Part shown: piece by piece, positions 41,168 through 61,183 of the stretch
Numbering within the stretch: position 1 is the stretch's first letter
Layout of the letters: the number at the start of each line of letters is the position of its first letter
Virus record (IMG/VR): IMGVR_UViG_3300020392_000008
Span: 41,023-105,022 of that record
DNA length: 64,000 bases
Reading direction: 5' to 3' (one strand)
DNA from: a virus
Notes under the pieces: generated by a model
What the model saw: only the letters and a program-made list of their open reading frames with translations
Database searches by the model: none
What the model was told of the DNA's origin: nothing
Position numbers and translations under genes: made by a program

Positions 41168-43324
41168 TTAAGCTATATTAAAATTAGGTAAAATTTTATT
41201 AGCACTTGCTATTGCTCTATTTGGACTATTCCCCCAACCTGCATTTGCTCCAGCATATTTAGCAATAGCATCCTGGTTATTAGCAAAGCCATTTATATCT
41301 ATCCCTGCTTTTTTAAATGAATTTATGAAATATTTAATTGCTACTTCAGCTGCAGTATCTACATTATTTAATAAGTCAGGATTGTTTACTAAATCTAAGC
41401 CCGTGTCTTTTGCCCATTGTTTGTATTGTTGTTTAAATGTTATTCCATTAAAACCTCTTCCTCTATACTTATATCCGTCCCCGGGTAAAACTGGATCGTT
41501 CTTTTTATTGTTCCAAGTATGATACCCATTTTTTACACCTATGTGTCCATATATTACATCATAAAAAGCAACATCATTCATCTTTAGTTTACTTAATTCT
41601 GAGTCAGTTAGGTGTTTTAAAGGCCCGCTAAATAAATCTCTTAATCTAGCATTGCTTGTTCCACTGTATGAATATTCTGATTTTGGTTTAAAATGTGTTT
41701 CTTTTCCAATAACAGTCAGCATTCCTATTAAACTATGTGGATTGGTAATACCTAAAGACTTAGCCTTATTGATCAGTACATTAATATTTTTAGCTCTAGT
41801 TCCAGTGTATTTATGTGTAACTTTTCCATTCAGATTAGTTGATGTTGATGTGTCAGTTGAGTTAGTACTCGTCTGTCCCGCTTCTTTAAATATATTTTGA
41901 ACAAACTTAGCATCTTCAGGGCTTAATTCAATTGCATTATTAGTTCCTAATTTGTCAGAGCCTGATTTATTATATGGTTTTAAATAAAATTTATTTAACT
42001 TTTTATTATAAACTATATCTACTTGAGGCTTCGAAGCCGGTTCTGTGCTAGTTTTACCTGGGCCACTGTCAGGCGCGCTTAAAATATTATCCGATGGACC
42101 TGTTCCGTCTATTGGACTAGATTTTACTCTGCCATCCCTATACATATCAGCTAATCTAGTATCGCTAGCTTGCTTTATATCTTTTATTTTATTTGCAAAT
42201 CTTTTAAGTCCTCCTTTTTCAAGTATCATATCTGAAAATTTACTAATTGAATTTTTATGTTCTATAACAGCTCTTTTAATTATAAAGTCTGAGCTAGTAG
42301 ATATATCTTTATTATCTACTTTTAGTATACTTCCAGGAAGCAAGGTCGGTATAGTAATATTTGCTAATTTTTCTATGAATTTATCAGGTGAACCTACTGT
42401 TACTCCTACGGTATTTGTTGAAGTAGAACCTCCTTTACTACTTGACTTAGATGGAACATATTTAACTCCCTTAGTTATAGATGCCAAAAGGCTCTTATCT
42501 ATCGGAGCGTCTGATTTTATATTGTTTTTAGATTTCCAATCTGCTATTGCATTGTTTGTTTTTGTTCCAAGTTCTCCGTCTACTCCATCTTTATTTGGTC
42601 CAAAATTTCCCAGATCATATCCTGCTTTTTTAAGGGCACTTTGTATATCTTTTATGTCATTTTTAGAAAGTCCTCCAACATATTCCTCTGAAGAAAAATC
42701 AGTTTTTGCATTCGCAACCGTTTTTGCAACCGTTTGTTCAAATTTATCATTTCTATGACCTTTAAAATAATCTATAAAACCTAATAAACTACCCTGTGAC
42801 ATTTTTCTAGTATTTCTTCCAACTCTGTGCCCTTCTCCGGATAGTTTATCATTAGTATTTCCTTCAATAGTGGTAAATGTTTTATTTTTAGAATCAACAG
42901 CCGTAACTATACCAGTATGGCCTCCACCTTTACGACTTTGAATAAATACTTGCCCGGGTTTTACTAAACTTGGATTAGATCTAGCTTTAGAAATAGGTAT
43001 TTTTAAAGAAGCATCAGCCCTATTCCAGTGCTTAAGAACACCGGCAGTTCTCACTACAGGATTCTTAACTCCCATTTCTTTACAAAAATCATCAAACATA
43101 GCGTATACAAAAGCTGCACACCATGGGTATCCTTTATTACCCATTGCTCTATTATCTAATCCTACTAAATCAAAATATCTATCTATTTCTTTACTTCTGT
43201 TTGATCCAGATGGTATTTCCCTTACATTTACGTTTTTAGCAAGCGTATCTGCATATGGAACAGCCATTTGATCAGGATCTCCATTAATAGCGGCTTCGCT
43301 TAATATTTCTCTAAAAGACCTCAT
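41168..43324 (-). CDS. Modular peptidoglycan hydrolase: CHAP + PG-binding + GH19-like, with capsid-targeting-like N-terminus
   Basis: 718 residues. Residues 1-11 (MRSFREILSEA) match the packaging tag. A CHAP-type amidase domain follows with Cys69 (YPWCAAFVYAMF) and His136 (GGGHTGIV), then a PG-binding domain at about 218-272 (DIQSALKKAGYDLGNFG, DGVDGELGTKTNNAIADW), a Ser/Thr-rich linker region, and a GH19/lysozyme-like domain from about 500 (LIGMLTVIGKETHF; GDGYKYRGRGFNGITFKQQY). Two distinct cutting domains suit a virion-borne enzyme that opens the wall at entry rather than, or as well as, a lysis enzyme. Not seen with a holin next door. Confidence 0.82.
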   Translation of the reverse strand: MRSFREILSEAAINGDPDQMAVPYADTLAKNVNVREIPSGSNRSKEIDRYFDLVGLDNRAMGNKGYPWCAAFVYAMFDDFCKEMGVKNPVVRTAGVLKHWNRADASLKIPISKARSNPSLVKPGQVFIQSRKGGGHTGIVTAVDSKNKTFTTIEGNTNDKLSGEGHRVGRNTRKMSQGSLLGFIDYFKGHRNDKFEQTVAKTVANAKTDFSSEEYVGGLSKNDIKDIQSALKKAGYDLGNFGPNKDGVDGELGTKTNNAIADWKSKNNIKSDAPIDKSLLASITKGVKYVPSKSSSKGGSTSTNTVGVTVGSPDKFIEKLANITIPTLLPGSILKVDNKDISTSSDFIIKRAVIEHKNSISKFSDMILEKGGLKRFANKIKDIKQASDTRLADMYRDGRVKSSPIDGTGPSDNILSAPDSGPGKTSTEPASKPQVDIVYNKKLNKFYLKPYNKSGSDKLGTNNAIELSPEDAKFVQNIFKEAGQTSTNSTDTSTSTNLNGKVTHKYTGTRAKNINVLINKAKSLGITNPHSLIGMLTVIGKETHFKPKSEYSYSGTSNARLRDLFSGPLKHLTDSELSKLKMNDVAFYDVIYGHIGVKNGYHTWNNKKNDPVLPGDGYKYRGRGFNGITFKQQYKQWAKDTGLDLVNNPDLLNNVDTAAEVAIKYFINSFKKAGIDINGFANNQDAIAKYAGANAGWGNSPNRAIASANKILPNFNIA

Positions 43325-43338
43325 AATATTATATAATT

Positions 43339-43839
43339 TTATTTATTTAAATGGCGATCTAATATTATCAACTGCCATTCACTTATCTTAGGGTAAGCCT
43401 CTTCAGCTGTTAAAAAACCTGCCCAGTCAACTTCTTCTGCTTGTAACTGATTTTTAGGTATTCTTAAACTATTCATCTTTATTTCAGATAAATCTTCTAT
43501 TTTGTGTAAAAAATAAATTAATTGCTTTTCAACATTTCCATTTTTATCATATAAATCACATACGTATGGCTCAGACTTTGAAAGTATGGAAGCATTTAAT
43601 TCTATTCCTGTTTCTTCTTTAAGTTCTCTAATAGATCCTGTTAAAACGTCTTCTCCTTTTTCTACTTTTCCTTTAGGTATTCCTAATGTTCTTTTTTGCC
43701 AACTGGCGTTAGTTGGATGAACTAGTAAAATTTTATTATCATGTATTATACATACGCCTGCTACTTTATTTTCAATAGAATCATCTACATCTTTCCACTC
43801 TTCGTTTAACACAGATTTCAAGCTTTTAAACGATTTCAC
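43339..43839 (-). CDS. Nudix hydrolase with packaging-type N-terminus
   Basis: 166 residues. Full Nudix box from residue 57 to 79: GKVEKGEDVLTGSIRELKEE then TGI, with the metal-binding REIxEE core (R71, E72, E75, E76). The first 14 residues MKSFKSLKSVLNEE fit the CTS-like pattern with a VLNE|E site. Nudix enzymes cleave nucleoside diphosphate derivatives; some phage ones act on RNA caps, ADP-ribose or NAD-linked compounds. The overlap of 4 bases with the upstream gene places it in the cargo operon. Confidence 0.85.
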   Translation of the reverse strand: MKSFKSLKSVLNEEWKDVDDSIENKVAGVCIIHDNKILLVHPTNASWQKRTLGIPKGKVEKGEDVLTGSIRELKEETGIELNASILSKSEPYVCDLYDKNGNVEKQLIYFLHKIEDLSEIKMNSLRIPKNQLQAEEVDWAGFLTAEEAYPKISEWQLIILDRHLNK

Positions 43840-44621
43840 TTTTTAGCTTTACTTTTTTTAACGTTTGCCCAGGGTTTACTAGGCGTAGCTTTGTTTACTC
43901 TTGCCATTGCCCATCCGTGTGCAGTCATGCCTGGTCTAGACCCTGAACTATAAAATGCTCCTAGTCCTTTAATGTATTCGGCTTTTAAACTTCCAAAAGT
44001 ATATCCTTTTTTATTTGCAACCTTTCTTATTTTTGCTTCAGTTGCTTTACTTAAAGTTTTTTTCTTTTTCTTTTTCTTTGCTTTTTTAGCTTCATTAATA
44101 GGTTCAGTATCTTTATTTCTTATGCAAAGTTCTCCTAATACTTCTATTTTACCTACTATTTCTTGAAATTTCTTTTGAGTAATGTCCATGTCTTTAGAAG
44201 TTGACTCAACTAATTCGTTTATTAAGTCATCATACTCGTCTTTAAAGTTTGACATATCAAAGTTTCCTTTAGCCGCTTTTTCATAATATGGTATTTTAAC
44301 TTTAAAATGATCATACGAAAGCATAGAAAAACCTCCTTTTTCTTTAGAGCTACTTACTGTGTTTTTTGCACTATCACCTCTTTTTTCCGCAAATTCTGTT
44401 AAATCTACTTTTGGGTCTATTGTTTCATTAGTTTTTTCTCTTTCATCTGCCTCCATCTTATCCCTAATTTCATAAGCTTTCTTTTTATCGGCTTCAGAAC
44501 CTTTTAATAACTTTTGAACTTTTTTCAATAAAGTATCTCTTTTACTACCCTTAGGCGCTTTATATTCAGAAGGATGCTCTTCTTTTAAATATTCAGTATA
44601 ACTTTTTATAGGCTTATTCAT
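43836..44621 (-). CDS. Basic DUF5872-like protein with tag and internal cleavage site
   Basis: 261 residues. N-terminus MNKPIKSYTEYLKEE resembles the packaging peptide. A helical acidic middle ends at EPINEAKKAKKKKKK, with an INE|A site before a very Lys-rich linker. The C-terminal 70 residues (GLGAFYSSGSRPGMTAHGWAMARVN) match DUF5872-type phage domains. The layout suggests a protease-released DNA-binding tail. Function unknown. Confidence 0.65.
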   Translation of the reverse strand: MNKPIKSYTEYLKEEHPSEYKAPKGSKRDTLLKKVQKLLKGSEADKKKAYEIRDKMEADEREKTNETIDPKVDLTEFAEKRGDSAKNTVSSSKEKGGFSMLSYDHFKVKIPYYEKAAKGNFDMSNFKDEYDDLINELVESTSKDMDITQKKFQEIVGKIEVLGELCIRNKDTEPINEAKKAKKKKKKKTLSKATEAKIRKVANKKGYTFGSLKAEYIKGLGAFYSSGSRPGMTAHGWAMARVNKATPSKPWANVKKSKAKK

Positions 44622-44624
44622 TTT

Positions 44625-44903
44625 CTATTTCTTTTTTTTATTTAAAATCTTTTTTACTTTTTCCCTAACTTTTTCCATTTTTTTAGCATAGGTAGGGTTA
44701 CTTTTTTTATTAAAGTTTATTTGTTGGTTTAAGCTTCCTGTTATCTTTCTCATATCACTATTTCTAGTTTTAATTAGCCAATCAGCAAGTGCTTTTATAC
44801 CTAATTCTTTAAACTTTCCATTTGCATCAGGTGCATCTGAATGATGAAACTTCAATCTTTTTTTCTCGTTTAGAACAAAATTTTTAAAATTTAATAGTTT
44901 CAT
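44625..44903 (-). CDS. Small basic protein with packaging-type N-terminus
   Basis: 92 residues. MKLLNFKNFVLNEKKRL has a VLNE|K site; the remainder is Lys-rich helix (HHSDAPDANGKFKELG and MEKVREKVKKILNKKKK). A small DNA-binding internal head protein would fit. In T4 such proteins (IPI-IPIII) are packaged by the same type of peptide and injected. Inferred by sequence style only. Confidence 0.6.
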   Translation of the reverse strand: MKLLNFKNFVLNEKKRLKFHHSDAPDANGKFKELGIKALADWLIKTRNSDMRKITGSLNQQINFNKKSNPTYAKKMEKVREKVKKILNKKKK

Positions 44904-45509: not shown

Positions 45510-46091
45510 TTACCAGTATCCTGGATATGTTTTTCCTCCCCAAAGATGGGCGTATTTGTTAATTCTACAAGACCAATATCCTGCTTTTGTTTTATCTTTT
45601 TTAGTGCTACATTTATGACGAGCAGCAAAACTTTTTCTAGCTTTAGGATCACTTACTTTGGCTTTTAGTCCTGTTGTATCTCCTATCTGTAACATTTTAA
45701 CATTTCCAGTTTTAGGATTTCTAACATATACTTTAAATTTTTTAGATCCTCCTCGCGTTGGATAATTAAGTTTAACTTCCCTGCCTTTATATTTAGCTTC
45801 ATTTAAAATAAAATCTTCTAAAGGTAAATCGAGTGGAACCGTATGTCCTTCGTATACTCCTACTTTACCTAAATCGGTTTCATCAAAAAGAATTGCGTCA
45901 TCGTAACCTAATTTTAGTTTACCTAAAGAGTAAAGTTCCCTAGCCTCTTTAAGAATTTCTATGTGAGAATGGCTTCCTGGTCTAAATACTGTTTCGACAA
46001 TAGATATTGAATTATCTATATGGTATTGTAAATTTTCAGAAATTGGATTTATACCAGTGTATTCACTAAATGATTTTATTCTATTTTTCAT
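45510..46091 (-). CDS. Tagged protein with basic zinc-like C-terminal domain
   Basis: 193 residues. N-terminus MKNRIKSFSEYTGINPISENL fits the packaging peptide. Mid-chain site DFILNEAKYKG precedes the C-terminal domain (KFKVYVRNPKTGNVKML, ARKSFAARHKCSTKKD, GYWSCRINKYAHLWG), a conserved phage module with Cys/His pairs. That domain was probably released by the same protease. Nucleic-acid binding is inferred. Confidence 0.65.
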   Translation of the reverse strand: MKNRIKSFSEYTGINPISENLQYHIDNSISIVETVFRPGSHSHIEILKEARELYSLGKLKLGYDDAILFDETDLGKVGVYEGHTVPLDLPLEDFILNEAKYKGREVKLNYPTRGGSKKFKVYVRNPKTGNVKMLQIGDTTGLKAKVSDPKARKSFAARHKCSTKKDKTKAGYWSCRINKYAHLWGGKTYPGYW

Positions 46092-47081: not shown

Positions 47082-48215
47082 ATGAAGACTATAAAAAGCT
47101 TTAGTGATTTTGATAAACAAGATAATCACGTAGATGAACAACTATTTAAAAGAGCTAGAGAAAAACGTAGAGAAAAGAAAGCGTTAAAGCAAGCAGACTC
47201 TCAAATGAATCCAAATGCAAGTGACGACAAAATAAGAGGAGTAAAAGGAAAAGAAGTATACACGGATTCTCAAGGTACTAGACATAAAGTAGTTTGGAAA
47301 GCACAGGATTCAACAAATTTTATTGTAAAGTTAGTTAATGATTATGATTGGTTAGATGCTAATTCAAATTTAACTCAAAATGGATCAAATGCCCTTTTAG
47401 AATTTTTAAATGGAGAAAATTCATTTACAAATCAATATGGAAAATTAGATGATGTATTTTTTCAAAAAAATATAATAGCTTATTCTGTTAGAGTAGATAC
47501 TGATAGGCGCCAAAAATTGCAATTTACAATATTAAATAAAGAAGCTATGATAGCTAAGCAAACTCAAAACGCTACAGACGGCGCTGAATTAGCTGACCTA
47601 ACAAATGTTACTTTTATTAATGCAAAAGATTTAATGACGATTGATTCAGGTATAGCTAAAAATCAAAGCATACTTTCAAATACCGAAGTTCCTGTTGAAA
47701 ATGAAAACGATGGAAAAGTTGATGATCAAGATAATCAAGAAAATACTAATCAAGAAATAGACAATGAAGAAAATAATGATATAGTAGATGAAATACCACT
47801 ACCAAATTCTGATTTAATAGGTAAGCAGTTTGAATATCAGAGCGGCGCAGACGGTAAGCTATACATTATAACAATAGATGAAGGCGATAATGGTCAACTA
47901 GAGTTTTACGCTAAAGCAAAAGATGGATCTAATGAAGGTTGGGTATATTTAAAAGACGGTGAGCCTTTTTGGAAAAACGCAGATGGAACTTCTTCAGCAA
48001 TAACAAATGCTAAAGATATTGAATTTTTTAAAAGAATTTATACTGATGAAGCTTATTTAAGACAATTAATAGCCGAATTTGAAGCAAAATATCCAAACGG
48101 AGCTGACTGGACTATTAAAGATATATTATTTTACACAGACGGTAATAAAATATATCAAGAAGAAGTTGCTACTGATGAAGAACAGCCTACAGTAAATGTA
48201 GCCGTCGCAAATTAA
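47082..48215 (+). CDS. Tagged acidic virion-type protein, 377 aa
   Basis: N-terminus MKTIKSFSDFDKQDNHVDE fits the packaging peptide; the next 25 residues are very basic (REKRREKKALKQ). The centre and end (IIAYSVRVDTDRRQKLQF, SGADGKLYIITIDEGDNG) are beta-rich with an acidic low-complexity hinge (EENNDIVDEIPL). It starts a plus-strand pair with the next gene, 8 bases away. A packaged or head-associated protein is likely, role unknown. Confidence 0.55.
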   Translation: MKTIKSFSDFDKQDNHVDEQLFKRAREKRREKKALKQADSQMNPNASDDKIRGVKGKEVYTDSQGTRHKVVWKAQDSTNFIVKLVNDYDWLDANSNLTQNGSNALLEFLNGENSFTNQYGKLDDVFFQKNIIAYSVRVDTDRRQKLQFTILNKEAMIAKQTQNATDGAELADLTNVTFINAKDLMTIDSGIAKNQSILSNTEVPVENENDGKVDDQDNQENTNQEIDNEENNDIVDEIPLPNSDLIGKQFEYQSGADGKLYIITIDEGDNGQLEFYAKAKDGSNEGWVYLKDGEPFWKNADGTSSAITNAKDIEFFKRIYTDEAYLRQLIAEFEAKYPNGADWTIKDILFYTDGNKIYQEEVATDEEQPTVNVAVAN

Positions 48216-50468: not shown

Positions 50469-50825
50469 ATGAAAAGAAAAATTGCTAACTTTAATTCTTT
50501 CATGAAGAATAAATTAAATGAAATGGAAGAAATGGATAACGAATTCGCAATGAGCATGGATGCTTATTCAGAAGCGCCTGAAGAAGATATGGAAGATAAC
50601 ATGGAAGAAGATCCAGATCTAGACATGGACGAAGAAGGAGATGAAGAAGAGGAAGAGCTTACTATGGAAGACCTTAAAGCTATCGTTGACGACCTTGAAG
50701 AAAGACTATCTGCATTAGAAGGCGGAGAAGAAGAAGAGGAAGAAGGCGAAGAGGAAGAAGAAGAAGGTGAAGAAGAGGAAGGCGAAGGCGAAGAAGAGGA
50801 AGAAGAAGCAGACGAAGAAATTTAA
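50469..50825 (+). CDS. Small acidic prohead-core-like protein (T4 gp67-type)
   Basis: 118 residues. N-terminus MKRKIANFNSFMKNKLNEMEE has the tag pattern with a KLNE|M site. The rest is dominated by Glu/Asp runs. T4 gp67 is a short, extremely acidic prohead core protein that the protease destroys, so this layout fits, but composition alone is weak evidence. A late-promoter box lies upstream and a terminator-like hairpin downstream. Confidence 0.6.
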   Translation: MKRKIANFNSFMKNKLNEMEEMDNEFAMSMDAYSEAPEEDMEDNMEEDPDLDMDEEGDEEEEELTMEDLKAIVDDLEERLSALEGGEEEEEEGEEEEEEGEEEEGEGEEEEEEADEEI

Positions 50826-52562: not shown

Positions 52563-53528
52563 ATGAAGTTAGAAAATAAAAATATTGGAATAGTAGGTCA
52601 GGGATTTGTAGGAACGGCCGTTAAAGAAAAATTAAAAGAATCTAAAACAATTTACGCATATGATTTAGATGATTCTAAATGTGGAATATTTAGTACAAAA
52701 GATGAATATAAACCTACTGATATTCCACTATTAGTGGATAATTGTGATATAATATTTGTGTGCGTACCTACTCCTATGTATGCTACTGGAAAATGCAACA
52801 CTGGTATAGTAGAAAATGTTCTTACTGAAATAAATAATTCCACATACACTAGTAATAATTTTTCAAAAAACACAATTGTTATAATTAAATCAACAATACC
52901 ACCAGGTACAACTGAATCCTTTAATAAAAAATATAAAAACATAGGTATTGTTTTTAGTCCTGAATTTTTAACAGAAGCTAATTCAATTGAAGATTTTAAA
53001 AATCAAAATAGAATAATTTTAGGTATAGATTGGGCAGAACATATTAAACCTGTAACAAAGGTTTTTAAAGATGCTTTTCCAGATGCAGAAATAGCTGTGT
53101 TAAATACAGCTGAAGCTGAACTTACTAAATATATGACAAATTTATTTTTAGCAACAAAAGTAAGTTTTTTTAATGACATGTATAAATTAACAGAGTCCAT
53201 TAATAACTCAGAAAATTTAGCTGTTTCTCAAAAAATAAAATTTGACTCTGTTGTAGACGCTACACTGTTAGATCCAAGAATAGGAAAATCTCATACATTA
53301 GTACCAGGTCCCGATGGAGATTTTGGCTATGGAGGTCATTGTTTCCCTAAAGACATGGCAGCTATTTTAAGTTTAGCAGATCAATTAGGCGCATCGTTGC
53401 CTACTTTATTTGGTGCAAGCACTACTAATTCTATAGTTAGAACAGATAGAGACTGGGAAAAAATGGAAGGGAGAGCAGTTTCTAATGATGAAAAAACTTT
53501 TGAACACGTTTTTCCACATGAGCTTTAA
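52563..53528 (+). CDS. UDP-glucose/GDP-mannose 6-dehydrogenase-like enzyme
   Basis: 321 residues. NAD-binding motif GQGFVG at 12-17, VPTP at 68-71, SPEF at 132-135, Lys189 in the ELTKYMTNLF helix, and catalytic Cys260 in GYGGHCFPKD. The reaction oxidises UDP-glucose to UDP-glucuronate. It is shorter than the cellular family (about 400-450 residues) and lacks most of the C-terminal domain, so activity on the usual substrate needs testing. Paired with the epimerase at 60266 it could lead to UDP-xylose/arabinose for DNA modification. Confidence 0.82.
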   Translation: MKLENKNIGIVGQGFVGTAVKEKLKESKTIYAYDLDDSKCGIFSTKDEYKPTDIPLLVDNCDIIFVCVPTPMYATGKCNTGIVENVLTEINNSTYTSNNFSKNTIVIIKSTIPPGTTESFNKKYKNIGIVFSPEFLTEANSIEDFKNQNRIILGIDWAEHIKPVTKVFKDAFPDAEIAVLNTAEAELTKYMTNLFLATKVSFFNDMYKLTESINNSENLAVSQKIKFDSVVDATLLDPRIGKSHTLVPGPDGDFGYGGHCFPKDMAAILSLADQLGASLPTLFGASTTNSIVRTDRDWEKMEGRAVSNDEKTFEHVFPHEL

Positions 53529-54608: not shown

Positions 54609-55040
54609 ATGCAGGTATTAAAGGTTCCATTAGTAAAAGACTCATTATTTGAAAGAGAGCTAAAAAAATATCTCTTATATAGAATGGACTTATTATTTAA
54701 AGAATACAACAATAATATACCTGACACTATTTCATGTAAAGGTCACTTAGGGAAGCATGTATTTAATATTATAACTAGTAATAATTGGAAATTTGGTTCA
54801 ACTAAAATAGTTCACGAGAAGGGTCCTAATGCAATAGAGATAAGGTTCGACAATGGTATAAGCATAGAAAAAAATTCTAAATTATCAATGGGCACCGGTT
54901 CAACTATGGATGGTAGAGTAATTGAAGGATTTATAGATTCTAAAAGCCAGGCTTCTATTATACAATCTTCCATAGATAATAATTTTACTATAGAAAAAAT
55001 TGTTAACCCCAAGGTTATTATAAAGTTAGAAAAACTATGA
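54609..55040 (+). CDS. Hypothetical protein, 143 aa
   Basis: Mixed alpha/beta protein (ERELKKYLLYRMDLLF; KFGSTKIVHEKGPNAIEI; SMGTGSTMDGRVIEGF). Convergent with the cyclase gene, overlapping it by 6 bases. No known family. Separated from it functionally unless both act on nucleotides, which cannot be shown. Confidence 0.5.
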   Translation: MQVLKVPLVKDSLFERELKKYLLYRMDLLFKEYNNNIPDTISCKGHLGKHVFNIITSNNWKFGSTKIVHEKGPNAIEIRFDNGISIEKNSKLSMGTGSTMDGRVIEGFIDSKSQASIIQSSIDNNFTIEKIVNPKVIIKLEKL

Positions 55041-55742
55041 AATATCCTTAACTACATAGGCTGTTACTTTGCCTACTCCTTTTAGTTTACTCAATGGTTC
55101 ACAGGTATGCAATTGAAGTTCAGATAACATTCTTCCAGATCTTTTTCTTTTTCCAGAATAACATTTATGTCTATAGTCTATAATTTCCATTTTATATTTA
55201 CTATCGTTTAAATACTTTACTATTTTTTCTTCTTGTAATTTATCTAAACTTTCTGTAAAACTAAAAGCCATTTCACCAGATTCAGATACAGTTGATTCCA
55301 TTCTAGATGCAGTGTTTACCGTATTTCCAAAATAATCCCATAATTTTTTATTTTGAATATTTACTTTCTTTTTATATAAAGGACCCCATGATATTCCCAT
55401 TCTAATAGTTAAAGGTTTTCCTTTTATCTTAATGGGTTTTTTATAAAGATTTTTTTGTATTTCTATGCCCGCTAAAATGGCTTTATATAATGAATCTTTT
55501 CCATCCCAGCCTAACATATAGCTATCGCCTATTGTTTTTATAATATCTCCACCGTGCTTTGGAACTATTGTTTCCATTCTTTTTTCATGTTCTTTAAGAG
55601 CGTCAAACATTCCATCTTTATGTAAGTTCCAAAGTTTAGAACTACCCTTGACGTCTGTGAATAAAATAGCTTGATCTTTTTCTTCTAGTTTATCTAAATC
55701 GGATACGCTTTCAAACAATTTAAAAGATGTTATCATGTTCAT
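55035..55742 (-). CDS. Class III nucleotidyl (adenylate) cyclase with packaging-type N-terminus
   Basis: 235 residues, cyclase homology domain at about 25-170. All catalytic positions are present: metal Asp30 (ILFTDVKGSS) and Asp73 (KTIGDSYM), base-selecting Lys69 and Asp136 (LWDYFGNTVN), transition-state Asn143 and Arg147 (TVNTASRM). The Lys/Asp pair predicts ATP and cAMP. The C-terminus (about 170-235) has a basic helical tail. The N-terminus MNMITSFKLFES has an LFE|S site of the packaging type. A phage-encoded cyclase is rare; a signalling or host-reprogramming role, or interference with cyclic-nucleotide defence, are possible. Confidence 0.85.
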   Translation of the reverse strand: MNMITSFKLFESVSDLDKLEEKDQAILFTDVKGSSKLWNLHKDGMFDALKEHEKRMETIVPKHGGDIIKTIGDSYMLGWDGKDSLYKAILAGIEIQKNLYKKPIKIKGKPLTIRMGISWGPLYKKKVNIQNKKLWDYFGNTVNTASRMESTVSESGEMAFSFTESLDKLQEEKIVKYLNDSKYKMEIIDYRHKCYSGKRKRSGRMLSELQLHTCEPLSKLKGVGKVTAYVVKDIS

Positions 55743-55822: not shown

Positions 55823-57094
55823 ATGAAAAATTATCTTAAAGACTTTAATAGTTTTAGCATAAATGAAATGGCAAGTACTCTTTCTAAGTTAGGATTGCCT
55901 AAAAAACTAATTAGAGTAATACATAGCCTACCTGATACTATAGAAAAAATTAGCCCTTTTGCATATGCAACAGCTAGACAAAGAGGAGCAGAACTTCCTC
56001 CTATAGGCGGAAATAGACCTAGTCATGAAGTAGAAATAATAGAACATTTTAGAATGAGAAAAACTCAATTGCTAGGTAATCAATATGGAACGTATCCAGC
56101 TAAACAACCAGGTTGGCTTGCAGAAAAACCATGGGGAGATCATAGTATTCTTCTAGCTGTCCCTGAGCCAGGTGGAAAATACGCAGGAGAAGATCCTAGA
56201 TATGACTACATTTATAATAAAGAAAGTGCATTTGACGATAGAGGAGCTGGAAGAGGAAAAAAATATAGAGTTATTACCATGGGAAAAGATGGTAAAATAC
56301 TTAGAGACTGGGCTGCTTTTCAAGGCAAAATAACATATCCTGCAAATCCAGAAACTGGAGAAAGAATGTATAGAAATGATTTTAAAGATTATCCAACCGC
56401 AGCAGATGGTAAAATAGACGTTTACGTATTAGATACTGAAACAGTTGGAACCGAAAGAGAAAAAAGACAATTAGGACCCGGTAAAGGATTTGATTGGCAC
56501 GATGTTCCAATTGGAAAAGCAAGGGCTAAAAAAAGAGAACGTGTAAAATCTAGACAAGTAACAGCTTACACTTTTATAGATGATTTTGCTGAAAGATTTG
56601 AAAAAATTCTTTCTTCTATTTTTGGTAAAAGAAAAAAGCAAGCTGCTGAAAAATATGCAAGTTTAATATTACAAGATGATGCAGATCCAACAGAATTAGC
56701 CAATCTATCTAAAGTTATACATGAAGAACCTAATGTAATGGATAATATTATTAAATATTATGAAAAATTCTTGAAATATCTTAAATTGAATGGAGACTAT
56801 GGACATGCTTCACAAAAAGAACTTCATGATGCAATGTATGTTAGAAACATGGAAGAACTCGCTTCAATAGAAGACATTGTAAAAGTTCATGGAAAAATGA
56901 AAGCACTTAAAAATTTCGCAGAGTTTATATTAACAGGTGATGTAAATGACATTAATAAAGAAATGGAAAAAGCAATTGAAGAACCTGGAGCTCAAATGAG
57001 AGACGATTTTGAAGACATGTTAGATTTTGATTTTGACATGGACAACCCCGCTCCATATAACCCTAACGAGGAAGATGACGAAATAGACATATGA
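55823..57094 (+). CDS. Tagged head-type protein, 423 aa
   Basis: N-terminus MKNYLKDFNSFSINEMAS with a SINE|M site. A mixed basic domain follows (PPIGGNRPSHEVEIIEHF, KYRVITMGKDGKILRDW) with many Arg/Lys, then helices (EKILSSIFGKRKKQAAEKYA) and a very acidic C-terminus. The composition fits an internal head or core protein. No family recognised. Its stop overlaps the next gene start by 4 bases. Confidence 0.55.
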   Translation: MKNYLKDFNSFSINEMASTLSKLGLPKKLIRVIHSLPDTIEKISPFAYATARQRGAELPPIGGNRPSHEVEIIEHFRMRKTQLLGNQYGTYPAKQPGWLAEKPWGDHSILLAVPEPGGKYAGEDPRYDYIYNKESAFDDRGAGRGKKYRVITMGKDGKILRDWAAFQGKITYPANPETGERMYRNDFKDYPTAADGKIDVYVLDTETVGTEREKRQLGPGKGFDWHDVPIGKARAKKRERVKSRQVTAYTFIDDFAERFEKILSSIFGKRKKQAAEKYASLILQDDADPTELANLSKVIHEEPNVMDNIIKYYEKFLKYLKLNGDYGHASQKELHDAMYVRNMEELASIEDIVKVHGKMKALKNFAEFILTGDVNDINKEMEKAIEEPGAQMRDDFEDMLDFDFDMDNPAPYNPNEEDDEIDI

Positions 57095-57468
57095 AACATA
57101 TAAAACTCTTTGAAAATAAAGAAAACAATATATTAAAACCATTGTTTGAACTTAAAAGAGTTGGTGTAGAGGCAACTGCTCTTGGAAAAATGAAAGATGG
57201 TGCTAATCTTATTTCTAATTATTTGGAAAATAACAAAAATGAAATAAGAAATGCTCTTGATTTCTATACTTCATGGACAATGAGTCAACATGGCGGATTT
57301 ACAAGACAAATAAGTGTTACAGATTTATTATATCCCTTCTTTATAAAATACAGTAAAGAAATAGAAGAGGGATTATTTAGCAAAGAATACGCTAAAGATT
57401 CTGATTTAGACATACCATCAGATGCAGAAGATATGTTAAGTTCAGATGATTTTGAATTAGATATTTAA
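57091..57468 (+). CDS. Tagged small helical protein, 125 aa
   Basis: MKHIKLFENKENN has an LFE|N site of the packaging type. The remainder is helical (EGLFSKEYAKDSDL, acidic end). ATGA overlap with the previous gene; 3' end overlaps the convergent membrane gene by 4 bases. Function unknown. Confidence 0.55.
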   Translation: MKHIKLFENKENNILKPLFELKRVGVEATALGKMKDGANLISNYLENNKNEIRNALDFYTSWTMSQHGGFTRQISVTDLLYPFFIKYSKEIEEGLFSKEYAKDSDLDIPSDAEDMLSSDDFELDI

Positions 57469-58064
57469 TTACAATCTTTACAATTAGAGTTAGAATTAGA
57501 ACTAGATTTACCTTTATTTCCTGTAGCGTATTTTACACCCATTATTGTACCTATTATACTAAATGCATTTGTTAATAGTATACCAAACATGTTGCTCCAC
57601 GTGTTTCCTATTAGCTGTGTTTCTTTATCATAATATATAGAAAACATATAAAGGATTGTTGTAAATAAACCTACTCCTATTATAATAGCCAGTGCTATTT
57701 TTACTATGACAGTTACTAGTTCAAATTGTGTCTTTTTTTGAAGAATGTCTAAGTCTTTTAATGCATTTTGTTTAGAATGCTCGGCTGTTTTTAGAGCGTT
57801 TTCTAATTTAGAATTTGCTTTTTCTACACTTTGCGTTGCGCTTTTTAATTGCTTATTTTGAGCTTGAACTTGCTTAGTTATGTCTAAACGTTTTCTTTGT
57901 TTTTCTTTTTGTAAATTAGTTGCTTTTTTTACATACTCTTCTAAGTTTTTATCATTTTCAGAATCTATCAATTTTAAAACATTACCTTCTATGTATATGC
58001 TTTTTTCTTTTCCTACTTGTAAAAGCTTTTCCTTGGTTTCTTTACAAAAAGTTATTTTCATCAT
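57465..58064 (-). CDS. Coiled-coil two-TM protein downstream of the two-component genes
   Basis: 199 residues. A helical coiled-coil region (about 50-110, QVQAQNKQLKSATQSVEKAN) with an unusually high Lys/Gln content is followed by two membrane helices (about 117-142, LVTVIVKIALAIIIGVGLFTT, and 154-176) and a Ser/Asn/Cys-rich tail (SSSNSNSNCKDCN). Its start overlaps the response regulator stop by 4 bases, so it is translated with it. It may be a sensor partner or an output component. No family recognised. Confidence 0.6.
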   Translation of the reverse strand: MMKITFCKETKEKLLQVGKEKSIYIEGNVLKLIDSENDKNLEEYVKKATNLQKEKQRKRLDITKQVQAQNKQLKSATQSVEKANSKLENALKTAEHSKQNALKDLDILQKKTQFELVTVIVKIALAIIIGVGLFTTILYMFSIYYDKETQLIGNTWSNMFGILLTNAFSIIGTIMGVKYATGNKGKSSSNSNSNCKDCN

Positions 58065-58498
58065 TTGTATATCTTAAAAGAATTTGTTCTATCTACGTAA
58101 CCCGGATAGTCTTTAAGAAAATCTTCTAATCTAGGCTCTATTTCGTCAGATTTAATTATCCAAAATTGAGCACCTGCGCTTATTGCTCTTGCCTGTTCTT
58201 CCTCCTCGTCGCTCGATGATATTATTCCTACGACTACATGATTTCCATAGTTAAAATTAATACGTCTAATTAATTCTATTCCATCGAAGGAGGAACCTAT
58301 CATATTTAAATCTACAAAAACGCATGACGGTTTTTCATGTTTCTCTATTCCATCAAACCATTTTTTAAACATTTTTTCTGCACCGTCTGCACTATTAATA
58401 GCCCTTAGGGATAGTGTTATATCTAATAAGCTACACGCGTCCTCAAACACTAAATGAAACAAATCTTCATCATCAACTAACATTATAGAATCAATCAT
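58061..58498 (-). CDS. Response regulator, single receiver domain
   Basis: 145 residues. The CheY fold is complete: acidic pocket Asp9-Asp10-Glu11 (MLVDDEDLF), phospho-acceptor Asp63 (VFVDLNM), switch Ser95/96 (GIISSSDE) and Lys116 (FWIIKSDEI). There is no DNA-binding or enzymatic output domain, so it must act through a partner. It lies 22 bases downstream of the histidine kinase on the same strand, with its own GATAAATA box at 58522. Stand-alone receivers in phages are uncommon. Confidence 0.88.
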   Translation of the reverse strand: MIDSIMLVDDEDLFHLVFEDACSLLDITLSLRAINSADGAEKMFKKWFDGIEKHEKPSCVFVDLNMIGSSFDGIELIRRINFNYGNHVVVGIISSSDEEEEQARAISAGAQFWIIKSDEIEPRLEDFLKDYPGYVDRTNSFKIYK

Positions 58499-58520
58499 AG
58501 TAATTTAAATATTATTATAT

Positions 58521-60182
58521 TTATTTATCTAAAGATATTTCTAGTTTAGTCCCTTTTCTACTTTTTAAAAGATTTAATTTCCATCCATGCTCTTTTATTA
58601 TCGCTATACATATGTTTAAACCGAGCCCGCTTCCAGATTCTTTATTATTGTGCTTTCGGGTATATGGCTTTGAATATTCTTCAAATTCTGTTTTACTCAT
58701 TCCTCTACCGTTATCTTCTACTACAATATTTCCTTTTTTTCTGTATATTTTAACTAATTTAGTATTGCTATCGTTATATTTTAAACCGTTTCTTATCAAA
58801 TTATCAATTGCTGTACAGAATAAAGACCCATTAACTATTTCTTCTCCTAATTCCGATAAAGATACGCTACTAGAATAGGCTGTGTTTTTTAAATAACTTT
58901 TTAATATACTGGTTAAATCTAGTTTTTGCACTTCCATTGTAGATTCCTTTTTAACTAAATTTGTAAATTCTTTAACTCCATTATATACTTTTTGAGAATG
59001 TGTAAGCCCTCCTTTTAATAATTTCATAGGCCCTTCAAACATTTTATTCAAGTCTTCTATATCTATATTATTTTCTTCAGAAAATTTAACAAGCCTTCTT
59101 TCGAATGAAGATATTCCTCTGGGAATATATGTATTTATTCCACTATGCATATCGTGTCTTAATATTTTAGAAGCATGTTCTAGATACGAATTTTTTCTTT
59201 CAAGTTCTATTTTTTGATTTATAGAATCACTTATATCGTTGGCTATTTTAAGTACTTTTACAACTTTACCTTTTGAATTTACTATAGGATTATATGTTCC
59301 GGCTATCCAAAAATGAGAACCATCTTTTTTTATTCTCATATATTCTCCATATTTAGAATTTCCATTTTTTATATCTTCCCAAAACGATTGATATTTTTCG
59401 TTTTCTTTCCATTGATCATCTTCCATAAATATTGTATGATGTTTACCCTGTATTTCATGAAGGGTTGGATACCCAGTCATTTCTAAAAACTTATTATTTG
59501 CGTTTATTACAAATCCATTTGTACAAAATTCAACAGTTGCGCTAGATTGATTTATGGCTAACATAATACCTGTCATTTCCTCTTCCTTGTTTTTAAGTTT
59601 TTCTAAAGAATCATATAGATCTGTTAAATCATGCCTAACTGACATAAAACCAATATGATTATTTTTTTCATCAAATTCAGCCATTATCCATGAATCAACT
59701 GTGTAATGCTTACCGTTTTTTTTACGATTTATAATTATTTCATTCCATATGGCTTTATGTTTCACGGTTGATGTGTACATTTTATTCCAAAAATTTAAAT
59801 CATGCTTTTTAGAACTTAACATAGAGTGATTTTTACCTAGTAACTCATGAGGCTTATATCCTGACGAATCGCAAAATATTTTATTTACATGTGTTATAAC
59901 ACCGTTTTTATCTGTTTTAGAAATTAAAGATGATTCGTTTAATATATTTTCAATAGTATTTCTTTTAATAGTTTCTATTCTTTGTCTCTTAATTATATCT
60001 TTAATTATTATCAACAATAAAGGCATTGATGATAATATACATACAAAACCTATTGATGAAACAGCATGGGTAGGTTTTATTAAGTCAAAAGCTAATAAAG
60101 TTTGAAGTATTGAAAATAATATCATTACTGTTATTAATAAAGTAATACTTACTTTAGATCTAAGTGTTAGGTTTTTAAACAT
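58521..60182 (-). CDS. Membrane PAS sensor histidine kinase
   Basis: 553 residues. Two membrane helices at about 11-31 and 41-60, PAS domains at about 76-190 (with FCDSSGYKPHELLGKNHSML) and 200-320 (WIAGTYNPIV), then an HisKA-type dimerisation helix with His343 (LRHDMHSGIN) and an HATPase domain: N box DNLIRNGLKYND from 460, G1 DNGRGM at 490-495, G2 GSGLGL at 517-522. It should sense a signal in or near the membrane and phosphorylate the adjacent regulator. A TATAAATA box lies 24 bases upstream. A full two-component pair in a phage is rare. Confidence 0.92.
   Translation of the reverse strand: MFKNLTLRSKVSITLLITVMILFSILQTLLAFDLIKPTHAVSSIGFVCILSSMPLLLIIIKDIIKRQRIETIKRNTIENILNESSLISKTDKNGVITHVNKIFCDSSGYKPHELLGKNHSMLSSKKHDLNFWNKMYTSTVKHKAIWNEIIINRKKNGKHYTVDSWIMAEFDEKNNHIGFMSVRHDLTDLYDSLEKLKNKEEEMTGIMLAINQSSATVEFCTNGFVINANNKFLEMTGYPTLHEIQGKHHTIFMEDDQWKENEKYQSFWEDIKNGNSKYGEYMRIKKDGSHFWIAGTYNPIVNSKGKVVKVLKIANDISDSINQKIELERKNSYLEHASKILRHDMHSGINTYIPRGISSFERRLVKFSEENNIDIEDLNKMFEGPMKLLKGGLTHSQKVYNGVKEFTNLVKKESTMEVQKLDLTSILKSYLKNTAYSSSVSLSELGEEIVNGSLFCTAIDNLIRNGLKYNDSNTKLVKIYRKKGNIVVEDNGRGMSKTEFEEYSKPYTRKHNNKESGSGLGLNICIAIIKEHGWKLNLLKSRKGTKLEISLDK
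58522..58529 (-). promoter_or_regulatory. Late-promoter-like box GATAAATA before the response regulator
   Basis: Minus-strand GATAAATA within the end of the kinase gene, 23 bases before the regulator start. Confidence 0.45.
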
Positions 60183-60206: not shown

Positions 60207-60214
60207 TATTTATA
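60207..60214 (-). promoter_or_regulatory. T4-late-type box TATAAATA before the kinase
   Basis: Minus-strand exact TATAAATA, 24 bases before the kinase start codon, in the divergent space between 60182 and 60266. Confidence 0.55.
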
Positions 60215-60265: not shown

Positions 60266-61183
60266 ATGAAAAATGTATTAGTAACAGGAGGCGCTGGTTT
60301 TATAGGTTCAAATTTAGTTAAGCACCTACTTAAGGAATATAAAGAAGTTGAAAAGATTGTTGTTTTGGACAATATGTTTACGGGCAAAGAAGAAAATAAG
60401 GTTGACCACAAAAAGGTCATATATATTGAATCTCCAACATGGGACATCGATAAATTTTTCTCAGATAAAGAAGGTCTTTTTGATACTGTTTTTCACTTTG
60501 GCGAATACTCAAGAATTGTTAAGTCTTTTAATGATAGCAAATATGTTATGAAAACCAATCTACATGGAACAACCTGCGTATTAGAAAAATGTAGAAAATG
60601 GAAATCTAAATTAATTTATTCCGCAAGTTCATCAAAATTTGGAAACGATGGAAAAGATGAAAACTTAAGTCCATATTCTTGGGTTAAGTCAAAAATTGTC
60701 GAACTAATTAAAAACTATAATGATTGGTATAATCTACAATATGAAGTCTGTTACTTTTTTAATGTATATGGTCCAGGGCAAATATCAACGGGTGATTACG
60801 CAACTGTTATTGGCATATTTGAAAATCAATACTTAAATGGAGAAAAAATGACTGTCGTAAGCCCGGGCACACAAACTAGAGACTTTACGCACGTATATGA
60901 TGTGGTTAGAGGCGTAGGTAAAGCCGCAAATATAGGAATGAATAAAGAGTGGCACCTAAGATCTGGAAAGAACGTGTCTATTATAAACGTAGCTGATATG
61001 TATAGTAGAGGAGATTGGCAATTAATACCTGAACGCAGGGGTGAAAGGTTTACATCTGAGGAGTTTCCATCTGATACTAATAAAGTACTTCAATGGGAAC
61101 CTCAAGAGTCATTAGAAGAGTGGATAGAATCAATACGCAAGTGTAAAAACTCAAAGGCTAAACCTGAGAAAATGATTAACTAA
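60266..61183 (+). CDS. NAD-dependent sugar-nucleotide epimerase/dehydratase (GalE-like)
   Basis: 305 residues. Extended SDR: GGAGFIG at 8-14, catalytic Ser (YSASSSKFG near 118-126), Tyr137 and Lys141 (SPYSWVKSK), then VYGPGQ and a TRDFTHVYDVVRG segment near 210. This pattern is common in phage and marine genomes and acts as UDP-glucose 4-epimerase or a close relative (UDP-xylose synthase, UDP-arabinose 4-epimerase). With the dehydrogenase and Agt-like enzyme it would fit sugar-donor production for DNA glycosylation. The exact substrate is open. Confidence 0.8.
   Translation: MKNVLVTGGAGFIGSNLVKHLLKEYKEVEKIVVLDNMFTGKEENKVDHKKVIYIESPTWDIDKFFSDKEGLFDTVFHFGEYSRIVKSFNDSKYVMKTNLHGTTCVLEKCRKWKSKLIYSASSSKFGNDGKDENLSPYSWVKSKIVELIKNYNDWYNLQYEVCYFFNVYGPGQISTGDYATVIGIFENQYLNGEKMTVVSPGTQTRDFTHVYDVVRGVGKAANIGMNKEWHLRSGKNVSIINVADMYSRGDWQLIPERRGERFTSEEFPSDTNKVLQWEPQESLEEWIESIRKCKNSKAKPEKMIN

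What the first reader, a model, noticed from the sequence alone, without database searches (positions are those of the whole stretch)
58061..60182. Complete two-component pair: membrane PAS histidine kinase plus stand-alone receiver
The kinase has two TMs, two PAS domains, HisKA His343 and intact N, G1 and G2 boxes; the receiver keeps Asp63 and Lys116. They are adjacent on one strand under late-type boxes. Full two-component systems are hardly known in lytic phages, and the late-type promoters suggest use late or in the virion rather than host takeover early. A signal such as superinfection or cell-envelope state could time lysis.
Basis: partly seen in the sequence, partly recalled or inferred. 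Interest (0 to 1): 0.9.

Follow-up and report, generated by a model that had tools for sequence, protein, structure and literature searches.

The report
Virus-only redox signalling operon near lysis genes
Hundreds of uncultured T4-like bacterial viruses carry a compact three-gene signalling circuit (a sensor kinase that probably reads the host's respiration, a phosphate-receiving protein, and a membrane protein), often next to their cell-bursting genes, which suggests that a virus can sense its host's energy state to decide when to burst it.

Summary
The window (part of a 105-kb T4-like virus record) holds an intact PAS histidine kinase (HK, 58521-60182) and a stand-alone receiver (RR, 58061-58498). 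The trio is widespread: receiver relatives occur in over 500 IMG/VR stretches; in 93 distinct loci the kinase lies directly upstream in 75/79 and P3 directly downstream in 87/91. Receivers are ~79% identical although terminases are at most 38% or undetectable. No receiver was found in 50,697 phage or 72,556 plasmid records, and only two loci in ~85,000 prokaryote species. The one clearly bacterial copy fuses the P3 N-domain to a second histidine kinase, so that domain probably takes the signal from the receiver. PAS1 keeps three flavin-pocket residues of Aer and MmoS, suggesting a respiratory redox input. Endolysin or holin genes lie within two genes in 52/93 loci (12.8 by random placement). 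Best reading: a virus-specific phosphorelay with a membrane output that regulates lysis. Architecture and lysis linkage are shown; signal, output and function are inferred. I found no published description.

The parts
58521..60182 (-). HK: membrane PAS-PAS histidine kinase, 553 aa
   Evidence: ORF; Pfam PAS x2 and HATPase_c; model pLDDT 89
60003..60146 (-). Two TM helices of HK (residues 13-31, 42-60) with a loop of about 10 residues
   Evidence: hydropathy
59613..59945 (-). PAS1 (residues 80-190): predicted FAD redox PAS; H119, N152, R183 equal Aer H53, N85, R115
   Evidence: PDB matches MmoS 3ewk, Aer 8dik, NifL 2gj3; residues; NifL model
59223..59543 (-). PAS2 (residues 214-320)
   Evidence: Pfam; LOV/phototropin-type PDB matches
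58959..59231 (-). Divergent phospho-acceptor (DHp) hairpin, residues 318-408; His343 codon at 59154-59156, motif RHDMHSGIN
   Evidence: invariant in 84/84; hairpin in model; no Pfam HisKA match
58527..58940 (-). ATP-binding CA domain (residues 415-552) with N, G1, G2 boxes
   Evidence: HATPase_c
58061..58498 (-). RR: stand-alone receiver, 145 aa; Asp63 codon at 58310-58312, Lys116
   Evidence: Response_reg; alignment A1
57465..58064 (-). P3: N-domain (1-38), long helix / coiled coil (39-115), TM hairpin (116-134, 159-177); proposed membrane output
   Evidence: ORF; TM; model; conserved in 87/91 loci
60207..60214 (-). TATAAATA box, 32 nt upstream of the HK start; possible T4-like late promoter

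Best explanation
HK-RR-P3 is a virus-specific three-gene phosphorelay of T4-like phages, probably of Bacteroidota hosts. SHOWN by sequence: kinase and receiver are intact and under strong purifying selection; the three genes form a conserved, tightly packed operon; the operon sits beside endolysin or holin genes in relatives far more often than chance placement gives. INFERRED: (1) PAS1 binds FAD and reads the redox/respiratory state of the infected cell; (2) His343 autophosphorylates and passes phosphate to Asp63 of the receiver; (3) the receiver, which has no DNA-binding domain, acts on the N-domain of P3; (4) the signal runs along the P3 coiled coil into its two TM helices, so P3 is the membrane output (holin-like or, somewhat likelier, a regulator of the holin); (5) the result is that lysis is timed to the energy state of the host.
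For: Invariant catalytic residues; dN/dS; operon in 75/79 and 87/91 loci; RR 79%, HK core 69%, P3 55% median identity while terminases are 24-38% or undetectable apart from the sister virus. Bacterial homologue L148 fuses the P3 N-domain and coiled coil to a second histidine kinase, so this module receives a signal. FAD-PAS residues H119, N152, R183 invariant in the 37/61 kinases with this PAS. GH19 endolysin adjacent in 28 of 39 loci that have one, 4.5 expected; lysis-type genes of several unrelated families within two genes in 52/93 loci, 12.8 by random placement. P3 model is a TM hairpin on a long cytosolic helix.
Against: No lysis gene adjoins the operon in the window itself or in L002. 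The set of lysis families was chosen partly after seeing the neighbours, and loci are not independent (17 of 38 P3 clusters). The P3 N-domain as receiver target rests on one bacterial fusion. 24 of 61 kinases lack the FAD-type PAS. Late genes cluster anyway, so linkage could reflect shared timing. No experiment exists. Host is inferred.
Confidence: 0.5

Rival explanations
1. The receiver acts mainly on a conserved host or phage machine (for example RNA polymerase) to switch phage development; P3 is an accessory anchor or feedback partner, and lysis genes are neighbours because all are late genes.
For: RR is far more conserved than HK, P3 or terminase, as expected if it has an additional, slowly changing partner; stand-alone receivers often act by protein contact (general knowledge).
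Against: P3 is as constant a partner as HK (87/91) and its N-domain is an input module in the bacterial fusion. Linkage is specifically to lysis genes rather than to late genes in general.
Confidence: 0.2
2. A superinfection-exclusion or envelope-protection device: P3 alters the inner membrane when the kinase senses a second infection or membrane damage.
For: Membrane sensor and membrane output; no DNA-binding output.
Against: Very short periplasmic loop and cytosolic PAS domains speak against an external signal; neighbours are lysins and holins; no match to defence models.
Confidence: 0.12
3. A host-derived accessory gene set that tunes host physiology (for example respiration) during infection, not lysis.
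For: Redox-type PAS; a bacterial homologue exists.
Against: The family is almost confined to viruses, deep and diverse there, and has a virus-specific P3 ending in TM helices instead of a kinase.
Confidence: 0.13
4. P3 is itself the holin and HK-RR its trigger.
For: Two TM helices, small size and position directly before an endolysin in many loci.
Against: Eleven loci have a separate Phage_holin_4_1 gene within two genes of the same trio; the long cytosolic coiled coil is unlike the small known holins (general knowledge); no holin profile matches P3.
Confidence: 0.05

Closest known systems
Bacterial two-component systems with a single-domain receiver (CheY / Spo0F type)
   Same: Transmembrane PAS histidine kinase, intact His/ATP-site motifs, receiver with the full active site and no output domain
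   Different: Virus-encoded and nearly virus-exclusive; divergent DHp not matched by Pfam HisKA; obligate third membrane gene
Aer / MmoS / NifL flavin redox PAS sensors
   Same: PAS1 with H119, N152, R183 at the flavin-pocket positions of Aer H53, N85, R115 and MmoS H132, N164, R195
   Different: Flavin binding not tested; output is an HK-RR-P3 operon, not chemotaxis, methane oxidation or nitrogen fixation
Bacterial HK-RR-HK operon of L148 (Bacteroidetes MAG)
   Same: Same kinase type, receiver 65% identical, third gene starting with the P3 N-domain and coiled coil
   Different: Third protein ends in a second histidine kinase instead of a TM hairpin
T4 / ICP1 lysis inhibition (holin T or TeaA; antiholin RI or ArrA)
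   Same: Phage environmental sensing that times lysis, tied to membrane energy state (PMC7182436)
   Different: No kinase or receiver there; no holin or antiholin homologue detected in P3
cREC receiver-like domain of jumbo phages (PMC7824862)
   Same: Receiver-like domain in large phages
   Different: cREC is described as never found in histidine kinase systems and linked to NAD enzymes; here the receiver lies beside a kinase in almost every locus

Membership tests
Two-component system (HK + RR) | Kinase with phospho-acceptor His and N, G1, G2 boxes | tested here: met
   Invariant or nearly so across 84 kinases; DHp hairpin and CA domain in the model
Two-component system (HK + RR) | Recognised HisKA-type dimerisation domain profile | tested here: not met
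   0 of 61 match Pfam HisKA or its variants at E<=0.01; fold is nevertheless DHp-like
Two-component system (HK + RR) | Receiver with acidic pocket, Asp, Ser/Thr, Lys | tested here: met
   D9, D10, D63, S94, K116
Two-component system (HK + RR) | Phosphotransfer from kinase to receiver | not testable with these tools
   Adjacent genes in 75/79 loci make it likely
Flavin redox PAS (Aer / MmoS type) | His, Asn, Arg in the flavin pocket | tested here: met
   H119, N152, R183; 37/37 members with this PAS
Flavin redox PAS (Aer / MmoS type) | Bound FAD with redox change | not testable with these tools
   Needs purified protein
Holin (P3) | Match to a holin family | tested here: not met
   No Pfam, PHROGs or NCBIfam holin match
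Holin (P3) | Small protein with TM helices next to an endolysin | tested here: inconclusive
   Two TM; endolysin directly downstream in many relatives, not in the window
Anti-phage defence system | Match of HK, RR or P3 to defence models | tested here: not met
   No PADLOC match

The most novel reading that the evidence does not exclude
A virus-exclusive phosphorelay in which a flavin redox-sensing histidine kinase, a nearly invariant stand-alone receiver and a two-TM effector read host respiration and directly time lysis: a new principle of phage environmental sensing, spread over hundreds of uncultured T4-like viruses.
Probability: 0.38. Interest if true: 0.93.

Novelty: new variant of a known kind. 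Interest (0 to 1): 0.84.

Why it matters
How lytic phages decide when to burst a cell is known mainly from holin-antiholin pairs. A dedicated, virus-owned two-component circuit conserved across divergent large phages would show that viruses have evolved their own phosphorelay, and would link host energy state to lysis. It makes the question directly testable: one kinase assay, one flavin spectrum, one deletion. It also proposes a role for P3, a viral protein family that is uncharacterised in public databases, and supplies a marker gene (the receiver) for a large uncultured phage group.

Tried and rejected
(1) One-off recent host gene capture: rejected; the sister lineage and about 90 other distinct loci carry the trio, and the window copy lies inside a deep viral clade. 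(2) Kinase search by exact peptides in IMG/VR found nothing because the kinase diverges; relatives were found through the receiver and P3 instead. (3) TATAAATA as a general late promoter of this window: no enrichment, and many permuted 8-mers do as well. (4) P3 fold search in the PDB: no meaningful match. (5) Deposited phages: no RR, P3 or DNA match; HK hits were partial (PAS or fragment) in four records, two of them listed as or within Salmonella/E. coli material. (6) Plasmids: no RR. (7) Defence origin: no PADLOC match for the trio. (8) Viral contigs with the P3 N-domain fused to a kinase: the contigs checked hold ordinary P3 with two TM helices. (9) Literature searches for phage-encoded two-component systems or lysis control by phosphorelay found nothing matching; subscription papers and preprints are not held, so prior description elsewhere is not excluded.

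Full report
OBSERVATION. The window is part of a 105,022-base virus record. Its large terminase is T4-type, with best relatives in uncultured huge phages, Sphingomonas phage PAU, Tenacibaculum phages and Flavobacterium phage MaF61. Minus-strand genes 58521-60182 and 58061-58498 encode a 553-aa kinase and a 145-aa receiver. Pfam finds two PAS domains and HATPase_c in the first and Response_reg in the second. The catalytic residues are present and, across 84 non-identical relatives, His343, N461, N465, DNG and GLGL are invariant or nearly so. Pfam HisKA is not matched by this kinase or by any of 61 relatives, so 'HisKA' is not strictly right. The AlphaFold model (mean pLDDT 89) has a normal helical hairpin with His343 in the first helix, and Foldseek matches solved PAS histidine kinases, first of all NifL.

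A THIRD GENE. A 199-aa protein, P3 (57465-58064), starts inside the last codons of the receiver (ATGA overlap). It has a small N-terminal domain, one long helix running into a first TM helix, and a second TM helix. P3 has no convincing family match, no solved relative, no structural match in the PDB, and one uncharacterised viral match in BFVD.

CONSERVATION. A scan of IMG/VR with the receiver gave 528 stretches encoding relatives; the best 80 are 74% identical or more. In 93 distinct receiver loci, a kinase of this family lies immediately upstream in 75 of 79 with enough sequence, and P3 immediately downstream in 87 of 91; 58 of these 87 have the 4-nt ATGA overlap and 20 abut. Pairwise medians are 79% (receiver), 69% (kinase core) and 55% (P3). 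The window's terminase is 90% identical in the sister L002 virus but only 24-38%, or not detectable, in the others; 15 of 32 long contigs have a T4-type portal gene, and all 32 have a HATPase_c match. Between window and L002 the receiver has dN 0.02 and dS about 2 (saturated), and the kinase dN 0.14 and dS 1.1: strong purifying selection, extreme for the receiver.

WHERE IT IS NOT. There is no receiver or P3 match in 50,697 phage records and no receiver in 72,556 plasmids. A scan of one genome for each of 84,980 prokaryote species found two loci (the scan needs short exact peptides, so distant homologues are missed). L147 looks like a phage contig in a bin (PhoH-like gene, ordinary P3). L148 lies in a Bacteroidetes MAG among bacterial-looking genes. 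With a profile, the only match among 396 Bacteroidota genomes and 292 genomes of its order was L148's own genome.

THE BACTERIAL COPY IS INFORMATIVE. In L148 the order is PAS kinase, receiver (65% identical), then a 349-aa protein whose first ~115 residues match the P3 profile (87 bits) and whose remainder is a second histidine kinase with HATPase_c and a HisKA match just under the cut-off. The P3 N-domain plus coiled coil is therefore an input module that can drive either a kinase or, in viruses, a TM hairpin. The simplest inference is that the phosphorylated receiver acts on this module. Only one such copy was found.

INPUT. PAS1 (80-190) best matches the flavin PAS domains of MmoS, Aer and NifL. 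The Aer flavin-pocket residues H53, N85 and R115, with MmoS counterparts H132, N164 and R195 (PMC9668731), fall on H119, N152 and R183 in the alignment, and all three are invariant in the 37 of 61 kinases that have this PAS. The loop between the TM helices is about 10 residues. A cytosolic redox or respiration signal is thus the likeliest input in this virus. Other family kinases have GAF domains (21 of 61) or other inputs.

LYSIS LINKAGE. The commonest neighbour in relatives is a GH19/PG-binding endolysin (phrog_181, 3.7e-68): in 39 loci that have one it is immediately adjacent in 28, with 4.5 expected. Other loci have Phage_holin_4_1, amidase_2, M15 peptidase or T4-type lysozyme genes. Together, 52 of 93 distinct loci, or 17 of 38 P3 clusters, have a lysis-type gene within two genes; random placement in the same loci gives a mean of 12.8 and a maximum of 21 in 1000 trials. 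The gene types were partly picked after looking, which inflates this; the GH19 figure and the variety of unrelated lysins argue that the link is real. In the window itself the neighbours are an epimerase-like gene and uncharacterised genes, not lysis genes.

HISTORY. In a kinase-core plus receiver tree the window pairs with L002 inside a deep viral radiation; L147 and L148 join together near the midpoint root. Recent capture from a host is not supported. The direction of any ancient transfer is open.

MECHANISM. Most likely chain: the flavin PAS senses the respiratory state; HK phosphorylates RR; RR acts on the P3 N-domain; P3 alters the membrane or the holin and shifts lysis. Because a separate holin gene lies within two genes of the trio in 11 loci, a regulator of the holin is likelier than a holin. 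The unusual constancy of RR suggests several partners (HK, P3 and perhaps a conserved host protein), which is why the developmental-switch rival keeps weight. T4 and ICP1 lysis inhibition show that phages do sense their surroundings to time lysis and that this is sensitive to the proton motive force (PMC7182436). A phosphorelay for it was not found in what I could search.

VERDICT. The observed pair is real and intact; its interpretation is widened to a three-gene, nearly virus-exclusive signalling operon linked to lysis genes. What each protein does biochemically remains untested.

Noticed in passing
window 55035-55742 (-): Class III nucleotide cyclase (Guanylate_cyc 9e-23; weak PADLOC PycC match 2.7e-10) starting MNMITSFKLFES, a leader like T4 capsid-targeting sequences with an LxE cleavage-type site; close relatives only in the two sister contigs. 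It might be packaged and injected.
   Followed up: partly
window 8111-61989, e.g. 43339-43839, 43836-44621, 44625-44903, 45510-46091, 47082-48215, 50469-50825, 55823-57094, 57091-57468: At least 11 proteins share short N-terminal leaders (such as MK-x-I-K-x-F ... [LIV]xE) resembling T4-type prohead-protease-cleaved capsid-targeting sequences; cargo would include a Nudix-like protein. The CHAP-PG_binding-GH19 protein at 41168-43324 begins MRSFREILSE.
   Followed up: partly
L015, L016, L018, L034, L041, L042, L058, L062, L087: Two kinases in the operon (HK - signal-peptide coiled-coil protein - HK - RR - P3). The second kinase is only 30-35% identical to the window's; the gene between them has no family match and might be a spanin-like or periplasmic sensor protein.
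   Followed up: partly
L117-L125, L132: Conserved block holin_4_1 - signal-peptide/coiled-coil/TM protein - HK - RR - P3 - Endonuclease_NS with signal-peptide-like start: looks like a complete lysis cassette with a secreted nuclease.
   Followed up: partly
L011, L020, L024, L025, L026, L050, L105: A full-length Hsp70 (DnaK) gene lies next to or near the cassette in about 10 viral loci.
   Followed up: no
upstream of HK in L029, L057, L065, L075, L076, L101, L108 and others: A recurring ATATTTAT-like motif just before the kinase start, in addition to TATAAATA further upstream; possible promoter or regulatory site.
   Followed up: no
window 52563-53528 (+) and 60266-61183 (+): UDP-sugar dehydrogenase-like and NAD-dependent epimerase-like genes flank the region; read from sequence only.
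   Followed up: no
PHROGs phrog_857 and phrog_731: Two phage families of unknown function match HK (1.3e-16) and RR (6e-7), so other phage kinase- or receiver-like proteins exist and are unnamed.
   Followed up: no
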